Below are positions 5,454-64,000 of a stretch of DNA of 64,000 nucleotides, piece after piece. Both the position numbers and the translations under genes were made by a program. Source of the stretch: Pontibacter ummariensis. Lineage in GTDB: Bacteria > Bacteroidota > Bacteroidia > Cytophagales > Hymenobacteraceae. Every line of letters starts with the position of its first letter. The first letter of the stretch is position 1. The notes beneath the pieces were generated by a model. The model was not told the origin of the DNA and made no database searches. It saw nothing but the letters and a program-made list of their open reading frames with translations. The DNA is taken from assembly GCF_900188175.1 (NCBI RefSeq), contig NZ_FZOQ01000019.1, positions 1 to 64,000 of the forward strand, in the 5' to 3' direction.

Positions 5454-5853
5454 GTGTCTCGTGTCCCACTCCTCCTTGAAGTATGTACTAAGGCTGATCT
5501 CTCCAGTAACTTTAGGGGAAAGCAATGGTTAGAATTTAGTCATTAGAACAGATAATTCTAGCAGGTATTGCCAGCGGTTTTCTATCCTTTGGTTGTTGAT
5601 TTACACTTATTCCTCCTCTTCTGTTTGCCTGCATGGCCTACCTGATTTATCTCCCCCGTTGGTCGGAACCTGCAAAGATTTAAGAGCCGGTTTTGGCTTC
5701 TCACGATTTAAGTTCTGGCTATGTATAGTGAGATGAGTAGCCGGGGCAATAGAGGCACTGATACAAATGGAGTTTAAGGTTACCGGCATACCTACGCGCA
5801 GATCTTTACCTACGGCAGAACGTCGACAAGATGCCTATATGTTAATTCCTTAT

Positions 5854-5882
5854 AATTTACCTTATGTTAAATAAGGTAAATT
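5854..5882. repeat. Perfect 12-bp inverted repeat
   Basis: AATTTACCTTAT and ATAAGGTAAATT flank a 5-base spacer (GTTAA). It is AT-rich, symmetric and placed upstream of the CBASS genes, so it could be an operator. No adjacent regulator gene is evident. Confidence 0.5.
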
Positions 5883-6224
5883 GTCATGTACTGCTGACAG
5901 GTACTAACGATTGAGGAATGGAGCCTGCCAAGAACTGACAGAAAGGCGTGATTTATATTTAATATATACTTTTTCTTTTATTATACAAATAAAAGATTGT
6001 AAATATTTAATATTATACAAGATGGCAAAGTGTACCAGAAAAATCTGGTCAAATAATTGATTCCACTAATCTAAATGGTAGATACGTAAAGCATACCATT
6101 AGGTTATATAATATTATTATCTTCTTTTTCCCGAGTGCAAAGGTAGTAAAATATATTAATCTGCAAATGCTTTCGGCAGGAAATCAGCTCACCTGCTTTG
6201 TTGAGATGAGGTAAACTTTTAGCC

Positions 6225-6362
6225 ATGAGTAAAGAAACAAGCAGAAAAGCTGCTTCTGCTGCATCTAAAGTTTTGAGAGACGGACGTACTAGTGCGGCAA
6301 GCAAGACAGCTGCAGGAAGCGCTCTTTCTCAAAGAGAGAGCAAAGGCGGCAAGAAGAAGTAA
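6225..6362 (+). CDS. Small Ala/Ser/Lys-rich protein, 45 aa
   Basis: ATG to TAA gives 45 residues, starting MSKETSRKAASAASKVLRDG and ending in GGKKK. It is strongly basic, low in hydrophobic residues and has repeated AASK/TAAGSALSQ segments. I recognise the pattern of a common family of tiny basic proteins in bacteria whose function I do not know. It lies 89 bases before the CD-NTase gene but is separated from it by a strong terminator hairpin, so it is probably a separate transcription unit. Confidence 0.65.
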   Translation: MSKETSRKAASAASKVLRDGRTSAASKTAAGSALSQRESKGGKKK

Positions 6363-6395
6363 GTAGCACATTAGTGCACTTATGAGAATGTAAAT

Positions 6396-6430
6396 AACTG
6401 GGCAGAGCAAAATTCTGCCCAGTTATCTTT
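6396..6430 (+). terminator. Terminator between the small basic gene and the CBASS operon
   Basis: A perfect 11-bp stem AACTGGGCAGA / TCTGCCCAGTT with a 7-base loop is followed by ATCTTTTATT. It ends 22 bases before the CD-NTase start and isolates that operon from the gene upstream, or acts as an attenuator. Confidence 0.75.
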
Positions 6431-6451
6431 TATTACCTTATTGATTATTCC

Positions 6452-7411
6452 ATGTCCACATACAAGAACAACCACCTCCAGTTCGTGCTCGACACGCACA
6501 ACATTAACCGAGAAGAAGAGAAAGACCTCTTAGATAAATATAAAACTAAGCGGGACAAAGTTAAAGATGCTCTTTGTGAAGAGTATGGCAGTGATATAGT
6601 GAAGATCATCAATTCTGGGTCTTACAGTAAGTTCACAGCAATAAACACAAAGTTTGATCTGGATCTGTGTGTGCATTTTAAGAGAGAAAAGTTTAAAACC
6701 CTCAAAGAGATGCACGATTCAGTATATGAGTTCCTAAAGAAAGAGTACAAGAAAACCGATGATGACCTAGTAAAGGTCAGAAAGCAAAAAGTATCGGTTG
6801 GGTTAAAGTTTAACGTAGATGGAGATGATGTGCTTTTTGATGTCACACCTGGGCGGAAGCTGGCTTCAGACTCCAATTCTGATGAAAATGACATAAAACT
6901 CTATTTGAATATAGAGGATGACCCAACTTCCAAAAAAACAAACATTCATAAGCAACTGGAAAAAATCAGAGGTAGGACTAATGAAAGGGAGACTATAAAA
7001 CTAATCAAGGTGTGGAAGTTCAACCACGACCATGACCTAAAATCCTTCCTGGTGGAGCTATTGACCATGGAAGCTTTCGATCAGGCGGAAGATGTGCCAA
7101 GAGGGCTCTGGGCCAGGCTAAAAATGTCCTTAGAATTCATTAGGGACAATATCAAAACAATCTCGCTTAAGGATCCTGGTAACAGCAACAATAATGTGGC
7201 AGATAGCTTAACTTCAGAGAGAAAAGATGAGCTGCACGAAGAGATTGAGGAAATGCTGGAGAAGATCGAGAAGGATGAAAAGAAAATAGAATATTACTTC
7301 CCGGCTAACCCTAAATACCCAAAAGAGGAAGAGAAAAAGAGCAGTAGCAACTCCCAGTACGAGAGAAAAAGTGAAGCTACTACGAAGTTACCCCCTACAT
7401 CTTATGCATAA
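6452..7411 (+). CDS. CD-NTase (cGAS/DncV-like nucleotidyltransferase) of CBASS
   Basis: CD-NTases make cyclic oligonucleotides on phage infection to switch on a cell-killing effector. The polymerase-beta-type active site is present: GSYSKFT (Gly56-Ser57), DLDL (Asp69 and Asp71) and the third carboxylate Asp130 in LFDVTPGR. At 319 aa the length fits. The C-terminus is a long acidic and then disordered tail ending ...PTSYA; in type II CBASS the CD-NTase C-terminus is the group conjugated by the E1/E2 protein, and a small last residue suits this. It overlaps the next gene by 8 bases (ATGCATAA), so translation is coupled. The nucleotide product cannot be told from sequence. Confidence 0.88.
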   Translation: MSTYKNNHLQFVLDTHNINREEEKDLLDKYKTKRDKVKDALCEEYGSDIVKIINSGSYSKFTAINTKFDLDLCVHFKREKFKTLKEMHDSVYEFLKKEYKKTDDDLVKVRKQKVSVGLKFNVDGDDVLFDVTPGRKLASDSNSDENDIKLYLNIEDDPTSKKTNIHKQLEKIRGRTNERETIKLIKVWKFNHDHDLKSFLVELLTMEAFDQAEDVPRGLWARLKMSLEFIRDNIKTISLKDPGNSNNNVADSLTSERKDELHEEIEEMLEKIEKDEKKIEYYFPANPKYPKEEEKKSSSNSQYERKSEATTKLPPTSYA

Positions 7412-56587: not shown

Positions 56588-56938
56588 TTATCCGCTGTAC
56601 CAGCTGAAGCTTTCTTTTTCACCGAGGAACAGGTACTGGGTGGGCGGGTTGTAGGGAACACGGTAAGTGAGCATGTGCCAGATGATCACCGCCAGCTTGC
56701 GAGCCGTGACACTCACGGCTGCCAGCCTTCCCTTACGGAAAGCCAACCTTTTGAGGAAGTCCGACAGGTGCGTCTCCTTTAGGTTGCCGATGACATTGGC
56801 CGCGTTCCGCAGGGCGATCTTAAAGTGGTTGCTGCCCTTCGGAGTATGGGAGCTGAGTACTCTGCCGCCGCTCACCTTCGTATTGGGGCAGTTGTGAGAT
56901 GGATTATGTTCGATACCTGCCCCTGCGTTGCCAGACAT
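56588..56938 (-). pseudogene. IS110-family transposase, C-terminal fragment
   Basis: The segment NTKVSGGRVLSSHTPKGSNH and AARKLAVIIWHMLTY-like text match the C-terminal Transposase_20 domain of IS110 transposases. The N-terminal DEDD domain is missing, and the first 17 residues of the frame do not fit the family. A dead remnant; no IS ends are seen. Confidence 0.75.
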
Positions 56939-57027
56939 TCATCTTCTCTTGTCTACAGTTTGCTTACACCCCCTTAGGCTTTACAATCACAGCCTCATTC
57001 TTTCAGAAGCTGACGGAGTCTGCATGT

Positions 57028-57100
57028 GCATTATAATGCGCTATCTATTGGTTTTTAGACAAAGATTAGTTTTTTTACCTAAAAAGGGCAGTATAATGCA
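57028..57100. promoter_or_regulatory. Operator of the hip locus
   Basis: GCATTATAATGC (57028-57039) is a perfect 12-bp palindrome. A related half-site GTATAATGC overlaps the hipB start (57091-57099). HipB-type proteins repress their own operon by binding two palindromes, so this is the likely target. Confidence 0.5.
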
Positions 57101-57305
57101 CCAACAACTAGGAGAAGTGGTTAAAGAGCGAAGGAGCTCACTGCATCTGACGCAAGAAGACTTGGCTGACATGGCCGGCGTAGCGGTACGTACGCTAAAA
57201 GCTATTGAGGTTGGAAAGGGCAATCCTTCTCTCAGCACCCTGCAGAAGCTCGCGGAGGTGCTGGGAATGGAGATACGGTTAGAAATCAAAAAGCTGAACA
57301 AGTAA
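57096..57305 (+). CDS. hipB: HipB-like XRE antitoxin
   Basis: A 69-aa HTH protein with LGEVVKERRSSLHLTQEDLA and VAVRTLKAIEVGKGNPSLST. The ATG at 57096 gives the standard HipB size; the open frame upstream to 56928 is non-homologous. It starts the hipB-hipS-hipT order, four bases before hipS. It represses the operon in known systems. Confidence 0.88.
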   Translation: MHQQLGEVVKERRSSLHLTQEDLADMAGVAVRTLKAIEVGKGNPSLSTLQKLAEVLGMEIRLEIKKLNK

Positions 57306-57309
57306 AACT

Positions 57310-57636
57310 ATGAGGACGGCAGAGGTGTTCCGAAACAGGGCGCTAGCAGGTTTACTAACAGAGGTAAGCCCAAAGGAATATGTTTTCCGCTACGAAGACG
57401 CTGACTTATCGCTACTAGCTATAAGCCTGACCCTTCCGAAAACGCAACAAGAGTACCGGAGCCCTTACTTGTTCCCTTTCTTTTTCAATATCCTTGCGGA
57501 AGGAGTTAACCGAAACCTACAGAGCCGGCAGTTACGGATTGATGAACACGATTATTTTGGTCTTCTGGTCGCAACAGCACAGTATGACACCATCGGGGCC
57601 GTTACACTCAAACCAAAACAAGAGAGAAACGCATGA
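57310..57636 (+). CDS. hipS: HipS-like protein (HipA N-terminal subdomain)
   Basis: A 108-aa protein matching the HipA_N/couple_hipA domain: VFRNRALAGLLTEVSPKEYV and SPYLFPFFFNILAEGVNR. In HipBST systems this part is a separate protein that acts as antitoxin to the kinase HipT. It overlaps the hipT start by 4 bases (ATGA), consistent with coupling. Confidence 0.83.
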   Translation: MRTAEVFRNRALAGLLTEVSPKEYVFRYEDADLSLLAISLTLPKTQQEYRSPYLFPFFFNILAEGVNRNLQSRQLRIDEHDYFGLLVATAQYDTIGAVTLKPKQERNA

Positions 57637-58669
57637 GCCTACCGGAGATCAACCGTTGCCCGGGCACATTAACCCCGGGCTACCATTCTTATAGTCCTGC
57701 CTGCGGAGGGTTTTTGATGGCAAGAAAGCAGGCCATATCCTCCCCTATCTGCCTGCGCAGGAAAGCGAGGAGGACGCTGCCAGGTTCATGGAGAACCGGA
57801 AGCGGATATCTATCTCCGGGGTACAGGAAGAGCTTTCACTGCTACTGGAAAAAAATCAACTGCGCCTTACGGTCGCGGGCAAACAGGGACAGTATTTACT
57901 CAAGCCCATTCCAAGGGACGTAAAGCGGCCGGACCAGGTATCGGCTAATGAGCACTTGACAATGCAGGTGGCGCACCAGGTGTATAAGATACAATTGGCT
58001 GGAAATGCCCTTATCCTCTTTCAAAACGGCGAACCGGCCTACATTACCAAGCGCTTCGACCATAAGCTTGACGGCACCAAACATAGCCAGGAGGACTTTG
58101 CCTCACTAGCTGGGAGAACCAGCTATACCGCCGGCAGAGGCTTCAAGTATGAAGGCAGCTATGAAGATGTCGCCCTCATCATCAAAGAAACAGTGCCGGT
58201 CTACCAGGTGGAACTCGAAAAGCTGTTTACGTTAGTTCTGTTTAATTACCTTTTTCCCAATGGGGATACTCTCCTTAAGAACTTCTCCTTTATAGATACC
58301 TCCTATGGTGACTATGTCCTTAGCCCGGCCTACGATCTCATCTGTACGCGCCTGCACGTAGAGGATACCAACTTTGCCCTTAAGGACGGTCTTTTCTATG
58401 ATGAGCACGAGACGGAAAGCTTTAAGGCGAGCAGCTTCTGCGCTTATAATGACTTCTACGCCTTTGCACTGAGAATAGGCATCAAGGAGACACGAGCAGT
58501 AAGAATACTCCATGCCTTCCAACAAGACTATCCGGCTGCTCATGACTTAAATGACCGCTCCTTCTTGAGAGACGAGGTGAAGGAGGAGTACAGAAAGTAT
58601 TATATGCAGCGACTGGAAGTGCTTAACTACTCCATGACAGGAAAGCTACCACAGGAGCGTAAACTTTGA
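57633..58669 (+). pseudogene. hipT: HipT-like Ser/Thr kinase toxin, frameshifted
   Basis: HipT phosphorylates a tRNA synthetase and stops growth. The N-terminal part (MSLPEINRCPGTLTPGYHSY, then SPAC) is in the hipS-coupled frame. The rest (LRRVFDGKKAGHILPYLPAQ onward) is in another frame and runs to 58669. Adding one 4-base CTGC unit in the CCTGCCTGC run at 57696-57704 would restore one continuous gene. Kinase residues are intact: SISGVQ loop, LLKP, NGDTLLKNF (catalytic Asp) and SPAYDLICT (metal Asp). A shorter protein from the ATG at 57788 would lack the N-terminal part only. Confidence 0.75.
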
Positions 58670-58757
58670 ACGTAAGAAGCTGTTCCTGCCTTGCTTGAAA
58701 GATACAAGTAAACATCGAGGGGCTGAAGAAGTATCTGGAGCGGTCCCTATCCACTTT

Positions 58758-58876
58758 CACTACTTTCATTACATTCATTAACCTCACGCGACTACTATAG
58801 TAATTACCTTCGTGAAACGCATGAAACACATTACAGGCATGGAGGTCATATACTCCATTAGTCTCATGTCATTCAT
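58758..58876. repeat. 9-bp phased repeat array 1 (about 14 units)
   Basis: CAT or CAC triplets occur every 9 bases at 58758, 58767, 58776 and 58785. After a gap of two degenerate units and a one-base slip, CGT/CAT triplets recur at 58811, 58820, 58829, 58838, 58847, 58856, 58865 and 58874. A typical unit is CATTAACNT or CATGAAANN. Likely partition-complex binding site. Confidence 0.75.
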
Positions 58877-59360
58877 TAACCTAAGGAAACAGCCTGTTTT
58901 ACCCTCCGGACGTTCCGTATGCTTACCCATACCTGGTTGTGCAAATCTTGCTCGGTATGTGTGTCGTTTGTTTTTCTTATGACACCTCTCCCTTTTACTA
59001 AGCAACACCTACTACTGGTAAGCTCTGCACAGGAGACGGTCCGACAGGGCAGTTTTCCCAAGCCCATGCTTCAGCCTCCCCTGTCCCTGCTTGTTATTTA
59101 CCCCACAACCTTGAGCTGGCCGAAGGGTCTGTTCCCTTTGACAAGCCCTGTTGCTCCCTCGAAAACAAGGCCACGCCTAATGTTGATTGCTCCTCCCCTT
59201 CCCTTTCGACCGTATCTGCCATGTCCATAAGACAGTACAGGTAGCAGCTACGTAATTCTTCATTAGCCAGGCTCTCGATTCCCTTTTAAGAAACCATGCC
59301 CGGAATTCCTACCCCGAAGCATAAGTGAAAGAAGTCAATAGAAAAGGGAGTTGACTCACT

Positions 59361-59579
59361 AATGATCCTCATAAACCTCATCACATCCGTTATACTCATG
59401 ACCCAGATGAATTTCATGGCCGGCATTATGTTAATGAGCCTCATGATCCTAACGACTCTATTGTGTTTGATGAACACCATGAACATCGTGAAGTCAATGT
59501 CCGTCGTGACGACAACTATCCTAATGAAATCAATCAATACCATGAAAAGAATGATTATAACGAGCTCCATCAGGGTAAT
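59361..59579. repeat. 9-bp phased repeat array 2 (25 units)
   Basis: From 59361 to 59577 every ninth position starts NAT, CGT or AAC (CAT at 59370, 59379, 59397, 59415, 59424, 59442, 59478, 59541, 59568). Units are degenerate and in mixed direct/inverted sense. The period also makes every third codon Met/Ile/Val in one reading frame, which explains chance ORFs on both strands. It is the longest array, so it is the best centromere candidate. Confidence 0.78.
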
Positions 59580-60004
59580 GAAGGCGTACTTGGGGTTGAA
59601 GACCCGCTGTCCACAAGTAAACTGTTAAGGCTATACCATAGCTTATTTGTGTGTCTTTCCTACAACACTAGTCTTTCAATGGGATCCGGATCAGAACAAA
59701 AAGCGAAAGCGTGAAGCTCATATTGCATGCTGGTATCAAGAGGGATTAAGCGGCGCTTTTTACGCGGCTACTACGATGCCTCTCTCCTTCCGTTGTACAC
59801 CGCTTTAAAGCCCTGTTATGGCACTGTTCTGGTTCGATCGTAGCAGCCTAAGCAAACCACAAAAACAGCGCTTGGCAACCCAGGATTGGCCACTTCCCCT
59901 ATTACGATATATGATCAAGGGTTTTCCTCATAACTGGCACTGTGGAGATGCTTGGCAAGAACTTACAATAGCTTTTCCATCCTCCATACACTTTAAAACG
60001 GTTC

Positions 60005-60098
60005 CATTAACTTCATTGCCTTCATTAACCTATTTAAATGCATTACCTTCATACCCAACATTAAACACATTATACTACCAGGCTTTCATGAGGTTAAT
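60005..60098. repeat. 9-bp phased repeat array 3 (about 10 units)
   Basis: CAT occurs at 60005, 60014, 60023, 60041, 60050, 60059 and 60068, all in 9-base phase, then after a one-base slip at 60087 and AAT at 60096. Units such as CATTAACTT, CATTAACCT and CATTACCTT give the clearest consensus, CATTAACCT. Confidence 0.78.
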
Positions 60099-60351
60099 GA
60101 CAGGGGCGACTAAAAAAGAAGGCCCATGTCAACGCTCTGTGTTTTCTTTAGTTAGCATGCAAAAAGATGGCTTAGAACCTTGAAAGGCTCTTTCGTTCAG
60201 TTTATGCTTCCGGATAGGAGAAGAGAACCTTCACAGTTGCCCCTCGATCCTCAGTAGAGGAACTGGGTTGAATCTCCCCGAAAGGTTTTAGGGACCGGGT
60301 ATGTACCTGCGCGCTCAGAGTGGCGAGAGTGTAACAAATCTTCTTGACACG

Positions 60352-60401
60352 AATTAGCCTCACTAGGTTAACAAGGTTAATTAACGTAGTGAGGCTAATT
60401 C
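60352..60401. repeat. 9-bp phased array 4 within a 15-bp inverted repeat
   Basis: GAATTAGCCTCACTA (60351-60365) and TAGTGAGGCTAATTC (60387-60401) are exact complements. Within it, AAT, CAC, AAC and AAT lie 9 bases apart at 60352, 60361, 60370 and 60379, then 60397. Position just after the RHH stop suggests a terminator or a mirrored binding site. Confidence 0.65.
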
Positions 60402-60426
60402 AACAAATGGCACTTATGCCTAATCC

Positions 60427-60885
60427 TTACTCTTCTTTCCGGCGCTTGGCAGCGCCCTCTTTCCTGTAATCCCAGGGCCTTTTCAGGGCCTTCAACTTCT
60501 TGCGCTCTTTTACCGGTAGGGGTGTAGTGGTCGAAGTCCTATCCTTCAGATAATCCTCTAGCGCGTTCTCTAATATTTCACGCAGCGATGTCCTGTCCCA
60601 ATACTCCACGCGTTTGGCCTTTAAGTAAAGATCAGCCCTGAGGATGGTCGAAAAGGGTAGGAGCACGTCTGCCGCGTTTAGGTAGTCATCTTCACTTATC
60701 CCACTGGCGTCACTTTGTGCTTTTGGCGCGGGGGCTTCTGCCGGCACCTCTGCCTTCACTTCAGGTTCTGCCTTAACCTCTGGCTCGGCTTTTACTTTGT
60801 CCTTCGAGTAAATCAGCTCGCTAAGGGACTTGCCTGTTCCTGTTTTAAGTCCAGACGTTAAGTTCAGTTTCTCTTTTTTTGCCAT
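60427..60885 (-). CDS. Ribbon-helix-helix centromere-binding partition protein
   Basis: A 152-aa partner of ParA. A basic N-terminus and a KAEPEV-repeat acidic/proline linker (about 30-65) lead to an RHH domain (about 75-120): strand STILRADLYLKAKRV, then helix SLREILENALEDYLKDR. A basic tail ends it. Type Ib partition proteins (ParG, Omega, pCXC100 ParB) share this design: a flexible N-terminus contacts ParA, and RHH dimers bind short tandem DNA repeats. It lies 98 bases downstream of parA, and that gap carries 9-bp units. Confidence 0.85.
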   Translation of the reverse strand: MAKKEKLNLTSGLKTGTGKSLSELIYSKDKVKAEPEVKAEPEVKAEVPAEAPAPKAQSDASGISEDDYLNAADVLLPFSTILRADLYLKAKRVEYWDRTSLREILENALEDYLKDRTSTTTPLPVKERKKLKALKRPWDYRKEGAAKRRKEE

Positions 60886-60915
60886 GGTTGCCTCTGTTTA
60901 CACTTGTTTGTTATT

Positions 60916-60981
60916 CATTAGAGGAATTAGGTTAATGATAGGGGCGTAGTTCATTAACCTAATTATTTAAATTAATGTAAC
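60916..60981. repeat. 9-bp phased repeat array 5 (upstream of the RHH gene)
   Basis: Units at 60916 (CAT), 60925 and 60934 (AAT), 60952 (CAT), 60961, 60970 (AAT) and 60979 (AAC) share one 9-base phase. Both AGGTTAATG and its complement CATTAACCT occur, so inverted units are mixed. Being directly before the RHH start, it could autoregulate it. Confidence 0.7.
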
Positions 60982-60983
60982 GA

Positions 60984-61742
60984 TCAGGTTCTTTCCAAGA
61001 CTTCCTCGGTAAGTTTTTTGTAATCTGTAGCACCATTTGCACTTGGCTCATAGGAAAAGATATCCTGTGCCTGCACAATCGCCACGTTTAGGGCGGTGTT
61101 TTCCCTGATCGTAGTGTCCAACAGCTTGCTGCCCAGCTCAACGCTCAGGTGGCTGTACACATCCCGATCAATTATCTTGTTACTAGACTTATTAAACCGA
61201 GTCAGGAATGCCCCCACAAACTCAAGTCCCTCATTGAACTGGCTGATAGTGGCTGCCGACTCCAGGATCGTCTTGACCCCCTGAATGGAGAAGAAGTCTG
61301 CTTGAAGGGGGATAAGGTAGTAGTTGGTAAAAAGCAGGGCGTTGATCGTCAGTACGCCTAAGGCGGGAGGGGTGTCGATGACGATGTAATCGTAAGCATG
61401 CACCTGGGGCAAGTCCAGCCTTTTTTTAAGGACAAACTCAGAGAACTTCTCCTTGGCGATCTGGATCTCGAACTGGTTGAGCTCAAAGCTGGCCCCGATC
61501 ATGTCTATACCGATTGAGGTTTTCAACAAGGCCTGGTCAAAGGATGCCTCCCCAACCAGAACATGGCCTATAGTAAACTCTAGCTCTTCCCTGTGCAGAG
61601 CCAGGGTCAGGTTAGCCTGCGAATCCAGGTCGATAAGCAGGACTTTGTTGCCCAGGTCCCTTAAGGCCCCGGCGATGTTAAGGGCCGATGTGCTTTTTGC
61701 TACCCCGCCTTTGTGATTGACTAAAGAGATGATTTTTGCCAT
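60984..61742 (-). CDS. parA: ParA-family partition ATPase
   Basis: A 252-aa Walker ATPase that segregates the plasmid by forming gradients on the nucleoid. It has a deviant Walker A NHKGGVAKST (residues 9-18), with Ala in place of the usual Gly before Lys; the signature lysine in HKGG is kept. Walker A' and B follow (VLLIDLDSQANLT, and YIVIDTPPALG near 125). The short N-terminus with no HTH identifies type Ib, which relies on a separate small DNA-binding partner, here the RHH protein. Confidence 0.93.
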   Translation of the reverse strand: MAKIISLVNHKGGVAKSTSALNIAGALRDLGNKVLLIDLDSQANLTLALHREELEFTIGHVLVGEASFDQALLKTSIGIDMIGASFELNQFEIQIAKEKFSEFVLKKRLDLPQVHAYDYIVIDTPPALGVLTINALLFTNYYLIPLQADFFSIQGVKTILESAATISQFNEGLEFVGAFLTRFNKSSNKIIDRDVYSHLSVELGSKLLDTTIRENTALNVAIVQAQDIFSYEPSANGATDYKKLTEEVLERT

Positions 61743-61750
61743 AGTGGTAC

Positions 61751-61825
61751 AATGATACTGATTAGTTTAATCAGCACAAATAGGCTAATTATTATTATTA
61801 GGTTAATGAATGTCATGATGTAATA
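61751..61825. repeat. 9-bp phased repeat array 6 (parA promoter region)
   Basis: AAT or GAT triplets at 61751, 61760 and 61769, then 61787, 61805 (AAT) and 61814 (CAT) keep the 9-base phase with one one-base slip. AGGTTAATG occurs again. It lies just upstream of the parA start and would suit operator function for the RHH protein. Confidence 0.65.
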
Positions 61826-61862
61826 GTAAACAGCTGATTGTCTGCTGCCTACCTAAGGGATC

Positions 61863-62927
61863 TTATAGGGCTAACTTCCCCTGCTCTGAGGACTCCTTAG
61901 CAGCCCACTTCAACAGGTGCCCGAAATGCTTTTTTAACAGCGTCATGGACCAGGCACCTGCCGTGACAGGGGGTTGCCGCCTTTCATGAAGTTTGTTGGT
62001 AACAATATCCAAGTTCAGCTGCTTCATCACCGGCCATAGCTCCTCCTGTGGGACTTTATCCACAACCTCACTAGCCTGTTCCGGGCTAAGGCCATAGGTA
62101 AGCGTAAGCCGGTTGTATGCGGTCTCTTTCTTACCTTCATATTTGGGTAAGAGCTTCCCGGATTCGGCAGGGGAGAGCTGCGCCCCCTCTGAAATCTTCT
62201 TCCTGGAGTTTGCTGACTTGATGTCGGTGAAGCGTACACCAATCACTTTCTTGCCGGATTTGAGCAACTCCATGTTAAAGGTAAGGGGGTTACCTGCTTC
62301 AGCTGACACCTCCTTCACTTCTGCTACCGCCGGCTCCAGTACGTACCGTTTGAAATCGTTCCACTGCGTGTACTTATCCGGCTTACCTTCTTCCTGCTTC
62401 ACCAGGATCGTCTTCAGGTTATCAATGGAGTCTTCGTACCTGGTAAGCGACTCATAGCTCCGCAGCAGCCAGTACAGCTTATAGGAATGTCCGGACTTAA
62501 GCTTAAGCAGGATTTCCAGCTCGCCGAGTGTAAACCCTTTCTTTAACTGTATCAGGTAAGGCTGAATCTTCCGTCCCCACTCCCCACGGATCAGGTTCTG
62601 CCCAACCTTCATCTCCATGTTATCGAACAAACCGCAGCTGTCATAGTCATAAGGGCCTGCATCAACTTTAAGAAGATTGATTCTCCGCTTATCCAGGCTT
62701 TTGACAGCCTCGTGGAGCAGCTTGTACATCTTCCCAGACCCTCCAGTGCCTATAACGTCGCTTATCTTAATATTAACTTCCCCAAGCTTTTGGGCATCTT
62801 TGGGGATTGTCTCAAGGAGCTTTGTAAAGACCTTAGCCTCTAAATGGGTGAAGGCTAAGTCAGAGCGCACCAGGTTGTTATGCTGGGCTACTGTCAGAAT
62901 GTTATCAACCTTCTTTAGTCTTTTCAT
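61863..62927 (-). CDS. rep: Rep_3-family replication initiator
   Basis: A 354-aa initiator with the two-winged-helix layout of RepB/Pi/RepE proteins: VAQHNNLVRSDLAFTHLEAK at the start, KLKSGHSYKLYWLLRSYES in the first winged helix, and a second domain around FKRYVLEPAVAEVKE. It binds iterons and opens the origin. I chose the ATG at 62927 (MKRLKK) because the longer frame to 63032 contains an iteron. It lies next to parA in the same direction. Confidence 0.93.
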   Translation of the reverse strand: MKRLKKVDNILTVAQHNNLVRSDLAFTHLEAKVFTKLLETIPKDAQKLGEVNIKISDVIGTGGSGKMYKLLHEAVKSLDKRRINLLKVDAGPYDYDSCGLFDNMEMKVGQNLIRGEWGRKIQPYLIQLKKGFTLGELEILLKLKSGHSYKLYWLLRSYESLTRYEDSIDNLKTILVKQEEGKPDKYTQWNDFKRYVLEPAVAEVKEVSAEAGNPLTFNMELLKSGKKVIGVRFTDIKSANSRKKISEGAQLSPAESGKLLPKYEGKKETAYNRLTLTYGLSPEQASEVVDKVPQEELWPVMKQLNLDIVTNKLHERRQPPVTAGAWSMTLLKKHFGHLLKWAAKESSEQGKLAL

Positions 62928-63012
62928 TCCATTTATATATCTTGATGGGTAAATATATAAAATAAAAACAGAATAAAGAGAGAAGGTGCTCTTTATTCTG
63001 TTTTTTTCGTAT

Positions 63013-63134
63013 CGTACTTTTCTCTGTATCATTCGTACCTTTCTCTGCCTGAGACGTACTTTTCTCTGTTTACAAACGTACTTTTCTCTGCATAGACACG
63101 TACTTTTCTCTGTATATAACCGTACTTTCCTCTG
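63013..63134. repeat. Iteron cluster 1 (six direct repeats), replication origin
   Basis: Six copies of CGTACTTTTCTCTG, two with single-base variants, begin at 63013, 63034, 63055, 63077, 63099 and 63121, spaced 21-22 bases. This is two helical turns, the classic spacing for Rep_3 iterons. They lie just upstream of rep, so they also cover its promoter. Confidence 0.92.
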
Positions 63135-63140
63135 TTTTAC

Positions 63141-63378
63141 CTACTGTACTCTACTTTGTATCAAGTACTTACAGCGCCTTGAATTAATAGAATAATAGAA
63201 TAAAAAGAAAGGAGGAATAGACTCCACTTTTAAGAAGTCTTGGTTTAAGAGTGAGGAAGTTAGGAGAAAAGGTGACATAAATGTGTCGCGCCCCGACAAC
63301 CGCTTCTCATTCTTGCGCAAAGAGTCCTTCAACTTTCCAGCTTTAACTTCCAAAAAGAACAAACATATCTGGCAGGAA
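63141..63378. other. AT-rich region between the iteron clusters
   Basis: No gene. The part around 63185-63215 (AATAATAGAATAAAAAGAAA) is very AT-rich and beside the iterons, so it is a good candidate for the unwinding site. I did not find a clear DnaA box. Confidence 0.45.
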
Positions 63379-63539
63379 CGTACTTTTCTCTGTTTTATAA
63401 AGAGAAAAGTACGTTTTGAGGCCATATAGATAGTTTTTCGAATATATAAGATGGCTTATAAAGAGAAAAGTACGATACGCCTGTTTGGGAAAACAGAGAA
63501 AAGTACGATTGCCTGAAAAGGAAAACAGAGAAAAGTACG
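63379..63539. repeat. Iteron cluster 2, mostly inverted
   Basis: One forward copy CGTACTTTTCTCTG (63379-63392) faces reverse copies at 63400-63413, 63461-63474, 63494-63507 and 63526-63539, two of them with AAGAG instead of CAGAG. Spacing is uneven (61, 33 and 32 bases). Secondary inverted clusters usually work in copy-number control through pairing (handcuffing). Confidence 0.82.
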
Positions 63540-64000
63540 ATAGGCCTGAAGTGATAGTCTGCAAAGACCGGAATATACGGTATACAGCCCCCTTTTATCC
63601 ATTAAAAGGGGGTAAAAAGACAGAAAACTGTGTGACCTTTACCCGAAATGGACAGCTGGGATAAGGTAGGGTTGCAGTATGTGAGAAAGTAGCGCACCTT
63701 TCTCTTTATTGCTCATTCTTTCTCGTCAACCTTCGTGAGGTTCATCACTGCTATGAGTTTAATATGCTTCATTAACTTCATGAGTGTTATTAAACTCATA
63801 GGAAAACAAAGTAGCGTTGTGATTAGTGTTTGGCTGTAAGGAGTTTAGATGCGAAAGGCTTCTGGTGTACATCGTAAGTCCTATCAAGGAATCAATAAAG
63901 CTATCTTGTTACAGGCTGGAGCGACAACCTGCAGTTGGCAGCAGGAGGCGCAGGCGATCGCCACAAGCTGTTTTACACTTAGAACATACTCCCAAGTATC
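63540..64000. other. Region downstream of the iterons
   Basis: No gene is supported. The seventh phased repeat array lies at 63734-63799. A near-palindrome AAAAGGGGG-type element near 63588-63612 (CCCCCTTTTATCC / TTAAAAGGGGG) has no clear role. Confidence 0.45.
63734..63799. repeat. 9-bp phased repeat array 7 (8 units)
   Basis: CGT at 63734, CAT at 63743, TAT at 63752, AAT at 63761, CAT at 63770 and 63779, TAT at 63788 and CAT at 63797 keep exact 9-base phase. Units TTCATTAAC and TTCATGAGT match the others. It lies beyond the origin, 2 kb from parA. Confidence 0.7.

What the first reader, a model, noticed from the sequence alone, without database searches (positions are those of the whole stretch)
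58758..63799. Seven dispersed arrays of degenerate 9-bp tandem repeats around parA-RHH and rep
Phased units of consensus CATTAACCT (CATNANNNN) occur in seven clusters, more than 60 units in about 5 kb, including both par promoter regions and beyond the origin. RHH partition proteins bind short tandem repeats (Omega 7-bp heptads, TP228 ParG boxes on an 8-bp period, pCXC100 uninterrupted 9-nt repeats). What is unusual is the number of clusters, mixed orientation and wide spacing, which would make a multi-site centromere for one replicon.
Basis: partly seen in the sequence, partly recalled or inferred. Interest (0 to 1): 0.8.

Follow-up and report, generated by a model that had tools for sequence, protein, structure and literature searches.

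The report
Plasmid centromere of nine-base palindrome arrays
A bacterial plasmid carries at least nine clusters of a short repeating DNA mark, spaced exactly nine bases apart, that most likely form the handle by which two neighbouring partition proteins pull plasmid copies into daughter cells; related plasmids carry the same kind of handle with other marks and, in some, an eight-base spacing.

Summary
Seven clusters (80 nine-base cells) lie at 58757-63804, and each passes a leave-one-out test. Two more lie outside the window on the same 107-kb contig (101878-101913 and 106853-106897). The unit is a palindromic core, T-(C/A)-A-T-(T/G)-A, plus a 3-bp spacer of little preference, so 'mixed orientation' is largely the symmetry of the core. 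The best explanation is a type Ib-like partition system: parA (60984-61742), a small downstream putative ribbon-helix-helix (RHH) gene (60427-60885), and arrays in both par promoter regions, beyond the origin, and in a 1.7-kb stretch after the RHH gene. The strongest evidence is comparative. Lattices of period 9 or 8 lie upstream of parA in 27 of 41 non-redundant systems, against 5 of 77 distant parA genes. Models learned there predict a second array at the parA-RHH junction in 8 of 30 systems. Core and period differ between clades. Binding and function are not shown, and the RHH fold is only weakly supported. It is a new variant of a known kind: palindromic 9/8-bp lattices, with an unusually large and dispersed set of arrays in this plasmid.

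The parts
58757..58890 (.). array 1: 4 + 10 cells of the 9-bp lattice, one break
   Evidence: 25.9 + 55.8 bits; leave-one-out 59.0 vs null max 10.6
59360..59584 (.). array 2: 25 uninterrupted 9-bp cells
   Evidence: 132.6 bits; leave-one-out 105.2 vs null max 16.1
60004..60103 (.). array 3: 8 + 2 cells
   Evidence: 45.3 + 16.2 bits; leave-one-out 35.0 vs null max 11.6
60342..60413. array 4: 8 cells just after the RHH stop codon; contains a perfect 15-bp inverted repeat, 60351-60365 / 60387-60401 (read from the sequence)
   Evidence: 38.2 bits; leave-one-out 28.7 vs null max 11.4
60427..60885 (-). 152-aa putative ribbon-helix-helix centromere-binding protein
   Evidence: relatives follow parA on the same strand in 36 of 36 loci where both ORFs were read, 43 loci examined; weak RHH profile matches of the family; no Pfam hit of its own
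60915..60986 (.). array 5: 3 + 4 cells in the parA-RHH gap (RHH promoter region)
   Evidence: 20.2 + 24.7 bits; leave-one-out 31.5 vs null max 10.4; junction arrays in relatives
60984..61742 (-). ParA ATPase, 252 aa
   Evidence: Pfam AAA_31 E 5.7e-45
61750..61821 (.). array 6: 8 cells immediately upstream of parA
   Evidence: 42.3 bits; leave-one-out 27.7 vs null max 9.6; counterparts upstream of parA in relatives
61863..63032 (-). Rep3-type replication initiator
   Evidence: Pfam Rep3_N 9.3e-20, Rep3_C 9.9e-11
63013..63550 (.). 22-bp iterons CGTACTTTTCTCTGT..., blocks in both orientations (63013-63135 and 63462-63550); origin, not part of the lattice
   Evidence: Tandem Repeats Finder and sequence
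63733..63804 (.). array 7: 8 cells beyond the iterons
   Evidence: 40.8 bits; leave-one-out 31.0 vs null max 10.7

Best explanation
The arrays are the centromere and operators of a type Ib-like ParA partition system on a plasmid. SHOWN: phased 9-bp palindromic lattices around parA, the small downstream gene and rep; the same architecture, with other cores and sometimes period 8, upstream of parA in relatives; near-confinement of the motif to this contig. INFERRED: a dimer of the 152-aa RHH protein binds each palindromic core through its two-stranded ribbon. Neighbouring dimers 9 bp apart (about 309 degrees, or -51 degrees per step) would build a left-handed protein helix of about seven dimers per turn on each array. 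Arrays at 61750-61821 and 60915-60986 would also repress parA and rhh. [quoted passage not shown] Arrays outside the par region (63733-63804, 101878-101913, 106853-106897) would be extra anchoring or operator sites.
For: Seven clusters are real, and period 9 beats periods 6-12. All 11 places of the best pattern in the genome are on this contig. The RHH ORF follows parA on the same strand in 36 of 36 loci where both were read, redundant copies included (43 loci examined). Upstream of parA, lag 9 is the top lag in 27 of 41 non-redundant systems (z 1.5-15.3) and lag 8 in 5 of 41 (z 1.8-8.8). Lattice fits exceed the maximum of 164 shuffle fits in 27 of 41 (22 at period 9, 5 at period 8), with median palindromy r 0.86 against a null mean of 0.45; 22 of the 27 exceed the null's 95% point. 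Controls above the same threshold: 5 of 77 distant parA genes, and at period 9 17 of a random 160 upstreams of other ORFs. Models learned only upstream of parA find a junction array in 8 of 30 systems; no array passes in 32 parA bodies. Motif similarity follows RHH similarity overall (Mantel r 0.316, 1 of 9999 permutations as high). Co-resident systems have lattices that do not cross-match: 0 of 28 ordered pairs above half the self score. The two remote arrays lie between or after ORFs, not inside the listed ones.
Against: Nothing here shows binding. Both AlphaFold models are poor and give a long helix instead of ribbon-helix-helix. The motif-RHH correlation rests on 7 of 231 pairs: without pairs of at least 60% RHH-domain identity it is 0.011. 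In 14 of 41 systems the upstream fit does not pass, and the window's own parA-upstream region alone does not (55 vs 62.4); 5 of the 27 that pass are not clearly palindromic. Of 160 other-ORF upstreams in the same loci 17 pass at period 9, 2 at 8, 5 at 7 and 9 at 10, so the single-region test has background. The co-resident result is compatible with chance, since only 9% of other pairs cross-match. Two further junction hits used the window model, and for the window itself that test is circular.
Confidence: 0.8

Rival explanations
1. The arrays are mainly operators: the RHH protein is a plasmid-wide repressor that coordinates par, rep-region and transfer genes, and only one array (or none) acts as centromere.
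For: Arrays 5 and 6 sit in par promoter regions and array 7 beyond the origin. The remote array 101878-101913 fills most of the gap between an ORF ending at 101874 and one starting at 101934, which I read as TraN-like and TraG-like. In pSM19035 each parS overlaps a promoter (PMC5016525).
Against: The largest arrays (58757-60103, 49 cells) lie in a 1.76-kb stretch downstream of the RHH gene whose longest listed ORF has 121 aa (none of these ORFs was searched), not at an obvious promoter of a long gene.
Confidence: 0.13
2. The arrays bind another plasmid protein (for example Rep or the HTH protein of the HipA module) or a host nucleoid protein, and their neighbourhood to parA is incidental.
For: Some arrays flank rep and the origin; the binding protein is not proven.
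Against: Rep has its own unrelated 22-bp iterons. Lattices recur upstream of parA in 27 of 41 systems, with core and period changing between systems, which a host protein would not explain. Rep was not detected by tblastn in several lattice-bearing loci, for example L071, L085 and L089.
Confidence: 0.05
3. The signal is a by-product of AT-rich low-complexity DNA or decayed coding sequence, in which lag 9 is favoured as a multiple of three.
For: Lag or period 9 is favoured in controls too: 13 of 79 distant parA upstreams have top lag 9, and 17 of 160 other upstreams pass the fit threshold at period 9.
Against: Dinucleotide shuffles, period comparison and leave-one-out; period-8 systems; palindromic cores; near-confinement to one contig.
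Confidence: 0.02

Closest known systems
pSM19035 delta-omega (type Ib ParABS, heptad parS)
   Same: Small RHH protein with a flexible tail plus ParA; several separate arrays of 9, 7 and 10 iterons overlapping promoters; direct and inverted repeats bound alike because the dimer is pseudo-symmetric (PMC5016525, section 6 read). At least four contiguous heptads are needed for full ParA activation (PMC9499535, passages read); six of the seven arrays here have a block of eight or more cells.
   Different: Period 9 (8 in some relatives) instead of 7; a near-palindromic 6-bp core; parA and rhh adjacent, where pSM19035 transcribes its genes separately; at least nine clusters here.
pCXC100 ParAB (type Ib)
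   Different: The review says direct repeats only; here the core is palindromic and the arrays are dispersed. Sequences were not compared.
TP228 ParF-ParG
   Same: RHH protein with N-terminal tail; repeats in the centromere and more repeats between it and the genes (review).
   Different: In TP228 repeats are separated by AT-rich regions in one continuous centromere; here a strict 9-bp lattice in many clusters.
SegA-SegB of Sulfolobales
   Same: ParA-like ATPase plus RHH protein; palindromic sites both upstream of the operon and scattered over the replicon (PMC12284271, passages read).
   Different: SegB motif is a 13-bp palindrome at discrete sites; here tandem 6+3 cells.

Membership tests
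Type Ib ParABS | ParA ATPase without an N-terminal DNA-binding domain (feature recalled) | tested here: met
   252 aa, AAA_31 from residue 3; Walker-type motif KGGVAKS read from the sequence
Type Ib ParABS | small centromere-binding protein encoded with parA | tested here: met
   152 aa; RHH ORF after parA on the same strand in 36 of 36 loci where both ORFs were read
Type Ib ParABS | C-terminal ribbon-helix-helix domain | tested here: inconclusive
   PDB profile hits to RHH proteins 9kkd 0.019, 2kel 0.026, 4aai 0.14, 7by2 0.72, ranked below three designed-repeat rows that I judge spurious; PHROG Arc-like repressor 4.8e-4 in 2 of 12 members; Pfam RHH_3 in 2 of 24 members at best 0.03; AlphaFold poor and not RHH-like
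Type Ib ParABS | flexible N-terminal tail with an arginine finger for ParA | tested here: inconclusive
   no secondary structure before residue 65 in a low-confidence model; the arginine finger was not tested
Type Ib ParABS | repeat centromere upstream of the par operon | tested here: met
   repeats at 61750-61821 and in relatives; that they act as centromere is not tested
Type Ib ParABS | protein binds the repeats, represses its operon, stabilises the plasmid | not testable with these tools
   needs EMSA/footprint, reporter and stability assays
pSM19035 omega subfamily | 7-bp heptad repeats | tested here: not met
   period 7 gives 87.6 bits against 388.8 for period 9
pCXC100 ParB subfamily | only direct repeats | tested here: not met
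   palindromic core T(C/A)AT(T/G)A
SegAB | 13-bp palindromic SegB sites | tested here: not met
   6-bp core repeated every 9 bp
Type Ia ParABS (HTH ParB) | ParB-domain centromere-binding protein | tested here: not met
   no ParB family among the matches of 12 members in Pfam or NCBIfam

The most novel reading that the evidence does not exclude
This is a clear case of an undescribed family of partition systems in Hymenobacteraceae plasmids whose centromere is a symmetric lattice, with core sequence and even spacing (9 or 8 bp) re-tuned between lineages, so that co-resident plasmids carry mutually non-matching lattices. In the window plasmid it has grown into a distributed network of at least nine arrays over 48 kb, reaching the transfer genes, that would organise the whole plasmid like a miniature chromosome and couple partition to transfer.
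Probability: 0.3. Interest if true: 0.7.

Novelty: new variant of a known kind. Interest (0 to 1): 0.52.

Why it matters
It would give a natural series of centromeres with the same protein family but different core sequence and different spacing, so that how an RHH protein reads DNA, how dimers stack and how plasmid incompatibility evolves could be tested by swapping arrays. It would also give a way to recognise unannotated partition loci: the matched gene is called hypothetical protein in all 12 plasmid records, and the window's member has no Pfam match. None of the titles and abstract openings listed points to such a system in Bacteroidota; these lists were capped (for example 30 of 80 papers, 12 of 841) and most subscription papers are not held, so this is weak evidence of absence.

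Tried and rejected
AlphaFold of the full protein and of the domain gave low-confidence helices from four-sequence alignments, so no fold search was run on them. IMG/VR scans with RHH proteins found one relative in five scans. A ParA scan of genome contigs returned mostly distant ParA genes, which were then used as controls. BLASTN of 58700-63850 against plasmids found nothing. A motif-RHH correlation beyond close relatives was tested and not found. The alternative that the arrays are Rep iterons was rejected because the iterons are 22 bp and unrelated.

Rows dropped: 9 of 86 loci without a readable parA-RHH pair; 36 of 77 pairs as redundant at 90% ParA identity; L162, L102 and L111 left out of the distant-parA set of 80. 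The other-ORF control is a random 160 of a larger, uncounted set. Of the places listed only those fetched (80 stretches) were counted. Eight further stretches were looked at but not added. Searches used a fixed background, under which 59 of 77 pairs pass the 62.4 threshold, so their sets differ slightly.
Full report
WHAT IS THERE. The window is bases 1-64000 of contig C78 (107,269 bp) in a 5.97-Mb genome of 80 contigs. The end of the window carries, all on the minus strand, a Rep3 initiator gene (61863-63032), a parA gene (60984-61742) and a 152-aa gene (60427-60885). Iterons of 22 bp lie upstream of rep. Next to the finding lies a HipA-type module. ORFs that I read as TraN-like and TraG-like occur near 101-104 kb (not searched against a library), so C78 is probably a plasmid; its ends do not overlap, so closure is not shown.

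THE REPEATS. Lag-9 self-similarity is significant over 58740-63810 (z 7.5), and lags 18 and 27 rank next. Its starting matrix favoured TNATNA; one search repeated the training from random starts and found the same core. The core is its own reverse complement at the level of the consensus, so plus-strand and minus-strand units of an array mostly fall on one register (site list; model). The seven clusters hold 80 cells; the longest, 59360-59584, has 25 without a break. Two more arrays that the model had not seen lie at 101878-101913 (24.3 bits) and 106853-106897 (31.0 bits), while 12 shuffles of the contig peaked at 13.5-20.4 bits. The first lies in the 59-bp gap between ORFs ending at 101874 and starting at 101934; the second lies after an ORF ending at 106745, with no ORF of 90 aa or more over it. 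Three consecutive cores with at most one mismatch occur at 11 places in the genome, all on C78; with at most two mismatches at 36 places, 24 on C78; the reversed control pattern gave 14.

STATISTICS WITHOUT CIRCULARITY. De novo training at periods 6-12 on the same clusters gave 388.8 bits at period 9; the next, period 12, gave 179.7. Training on six clusters and scoring the seventh gave 27.7-105.2 bits, against maxima of 9.6-16.1 in 300 dinucleotide shuffles per cluster. All seven pass.

RELATIVES. Relatives of the 152-aa protein were found in 65 of 200 genomes of the same family, the own genome included; in 12 records of a plasmid collection, all Hymenobacter, at a permissive E-value limit of 1; and in 4 of 296 genomes spread over the phylum, the own genome and one family member among them. 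In 36 of 36 loci in which both ORFs could be read (43 examined, redundant copies included) the gene directly follows parA (gap -11 to 180 bp). A wider set gave 77 pairs from 86 loci, 41 of them non-redundant, the window counted. In the 300 bp upstream of parA the top lag among 5-15 was 9 in 27 of 41 and 8 in 5 of 41; some of these are weak (z from 1.5). Fitted lattices exceeded the maximum of 164 fits to shuffled upstreams in 27 of 41: 22 at period 9 and 5 at period 8. Their palindromy was above the null (median r 0.86; null mean 0.45, 95% point 0.72; 22 of 27 above that point), though the null fits are weaker lattices and so not a perfect match. The five below that point are L069, L073, L089, L094 and L216; two of them have period 8. 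Cores differ between clades, for example TMATKW, ASWWST, TAMKTR and TAWWTA at period 9 and WAYGTW at period 8. On a ParA tree the period-8 label needs two changes (shuffled mean 4.9). These results are the main reason to tie the arrays to the par operon.

CONTROLS. With the same threshold, 5 of 77 distant parA upstreams pass at period 9 and none at 8. Of a random 160 upstreams of other ORFs in the same loci, 17 pass at period 9, 2 at 8, 5 at 7 and 9 at 10. A stricter test asks whether a model learned only upstream of parA finds arrays elsewhere in the operon. The junction of parA and the RHH gene exceeds all 200 shuffles in 8 of 30 such systems (L062, L063, L078, L086, L091, L094, L096, L236). 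With the window model it also does so in L059 and, circularly, in the window itself (10 of 32 in all). The parA body does so in 0 of 32. The rest of the RHH gene plus 150 bp does so in 2 of 32 (L210 and, circularly, the window). For the window the leave-one-out score of its junction array was 31.5 against 10.4. In L062, L063 and L078 the junction array lies inside the coding sequence for the poorly conserved N-terminal part of the RHH protein.

WHOLE-CONTIG VIEW. Nine relative contigs were scanned, seven with their own model. The strongest array of each of the seven lies at parA or the junction. Weaker remote segments above the shuffle maximum also occur, for example two of 26.4 bits in G003:C2 (shuffle maximum 18.7) and one of 25.1 in NZ_CP141186.1 (maximum 15.6), and some barely above it in G131, G048 and G196. 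G131:C48 (42% identity in the RHH protein), the nearest relative with a readable operon, has five clusters within 4.6 kb under the window model, two of them before rep. No cluster was found with the window model in G048:C15. Many strong clusters are thus a trait of the window and its near relative more than of the family.

WHAT FAILED OR SPEAKS AGAINST. The RHH fold is not confirmed: profile matches are borderline and both AlphaFold models are poor. Motif similarity follows RHH similarity only through close relatives: Mantel r is 0.316 over 22 period-9 systems, but 0.011 once 7 of 231 pairs with at least 60% identity are removed. Systems in one genome never cross-match (0 of 28 ordered pairs, nine genomes), but only 9% of other pairs do, so this is weak. 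Fourteen of 41 upstreams do not pass, the window's own among them (55 against 62.4).

MECHANISM. By analogy with type Ib systems (review section read), the small protein should bind the repeats as a dimer, repress the operon, and activate ParA through its tail. For omega of pSM19035 at least four contiguous repeats are required for full activity (passages read). In the window, arrays 1, 2, 3, 4, 6 and 7 have eight or more contiguous cells in their main block. A 9-bp step turns B-DNA by about 309 degrees, so successive dimers would wind as a left-handed helix with about seven per turn; this is geometry, not a result.

COMPARISON AND VERDICT. The system works like a type Ib ParABS and meets the gene-order, ATPase and repeat-position features; the fold is inconclusive and all functional features are untested. 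It is not an omega system (period) and not a pCXC100-like direct-repeat centromere (palindromic core). I file it as a new variant of a known kind. The titles and abstract openings seen showed no report on RHH partition systems of Bacteroidota plasmids; the lists were capped and subscription papers are mostly not held.

Noticed in passing
window 56928-58669 (+): A HipA-type module split into an ORF that I read as an HTH protein, a Couple_hipA ORF (57310-57636) and a HipA_C ORF (57788-58669), resembling the tripartite HipBST order (recalled) next to the centromere region.
   Followed up: partly
L251 (G000:C59:144000-155000), parA ORF at 5921-6817, RHH-like ORF at 5540-5863, minus strand: A second parA plus RHH-like gene on another contig of the same genome, with its own period-9 fit upstream of parA (65.1 bits; 31-38 at periods 7, 8 and 10).
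   Followed up: partly
L252, L253, L254 (three contigs of genome G408): RHH-like proteins after parA in another family of the phylum have a long QSD/QPE-type repetitive linker whose coding DNA holds the lag-9 maximum of the stretch; whether this is a DNA array or only a protein repeat is open.
   Followed up: no
L062 4195-4266; L078 8816-8932: The second array lies inside the coding sequence of the RHH protein's N-terminal part, so the tail seems to tolerate embedded DNA sites.
   Followed up: partly
L198 (IMG/VR contig of 43,497 bp): A contig of the same length as G048:C15, with the same RHH protein, is catalogued as viral though it carries a parA-RHH pair; perhaps a phage-plasmid.
   Followed up: no
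L058 (G113:C34): The closest RHH relative (66-67% identity) has an in-frame stop and only fragmentary parA matches beside it, yet keeps three lattice arrays.
   Followed up: no
L111 (contig of a MAG titled Acidobacteria bacterium): An RHH relative after parA outside Bacteroidota; no significant lattice upstream.
   Followed up: partly
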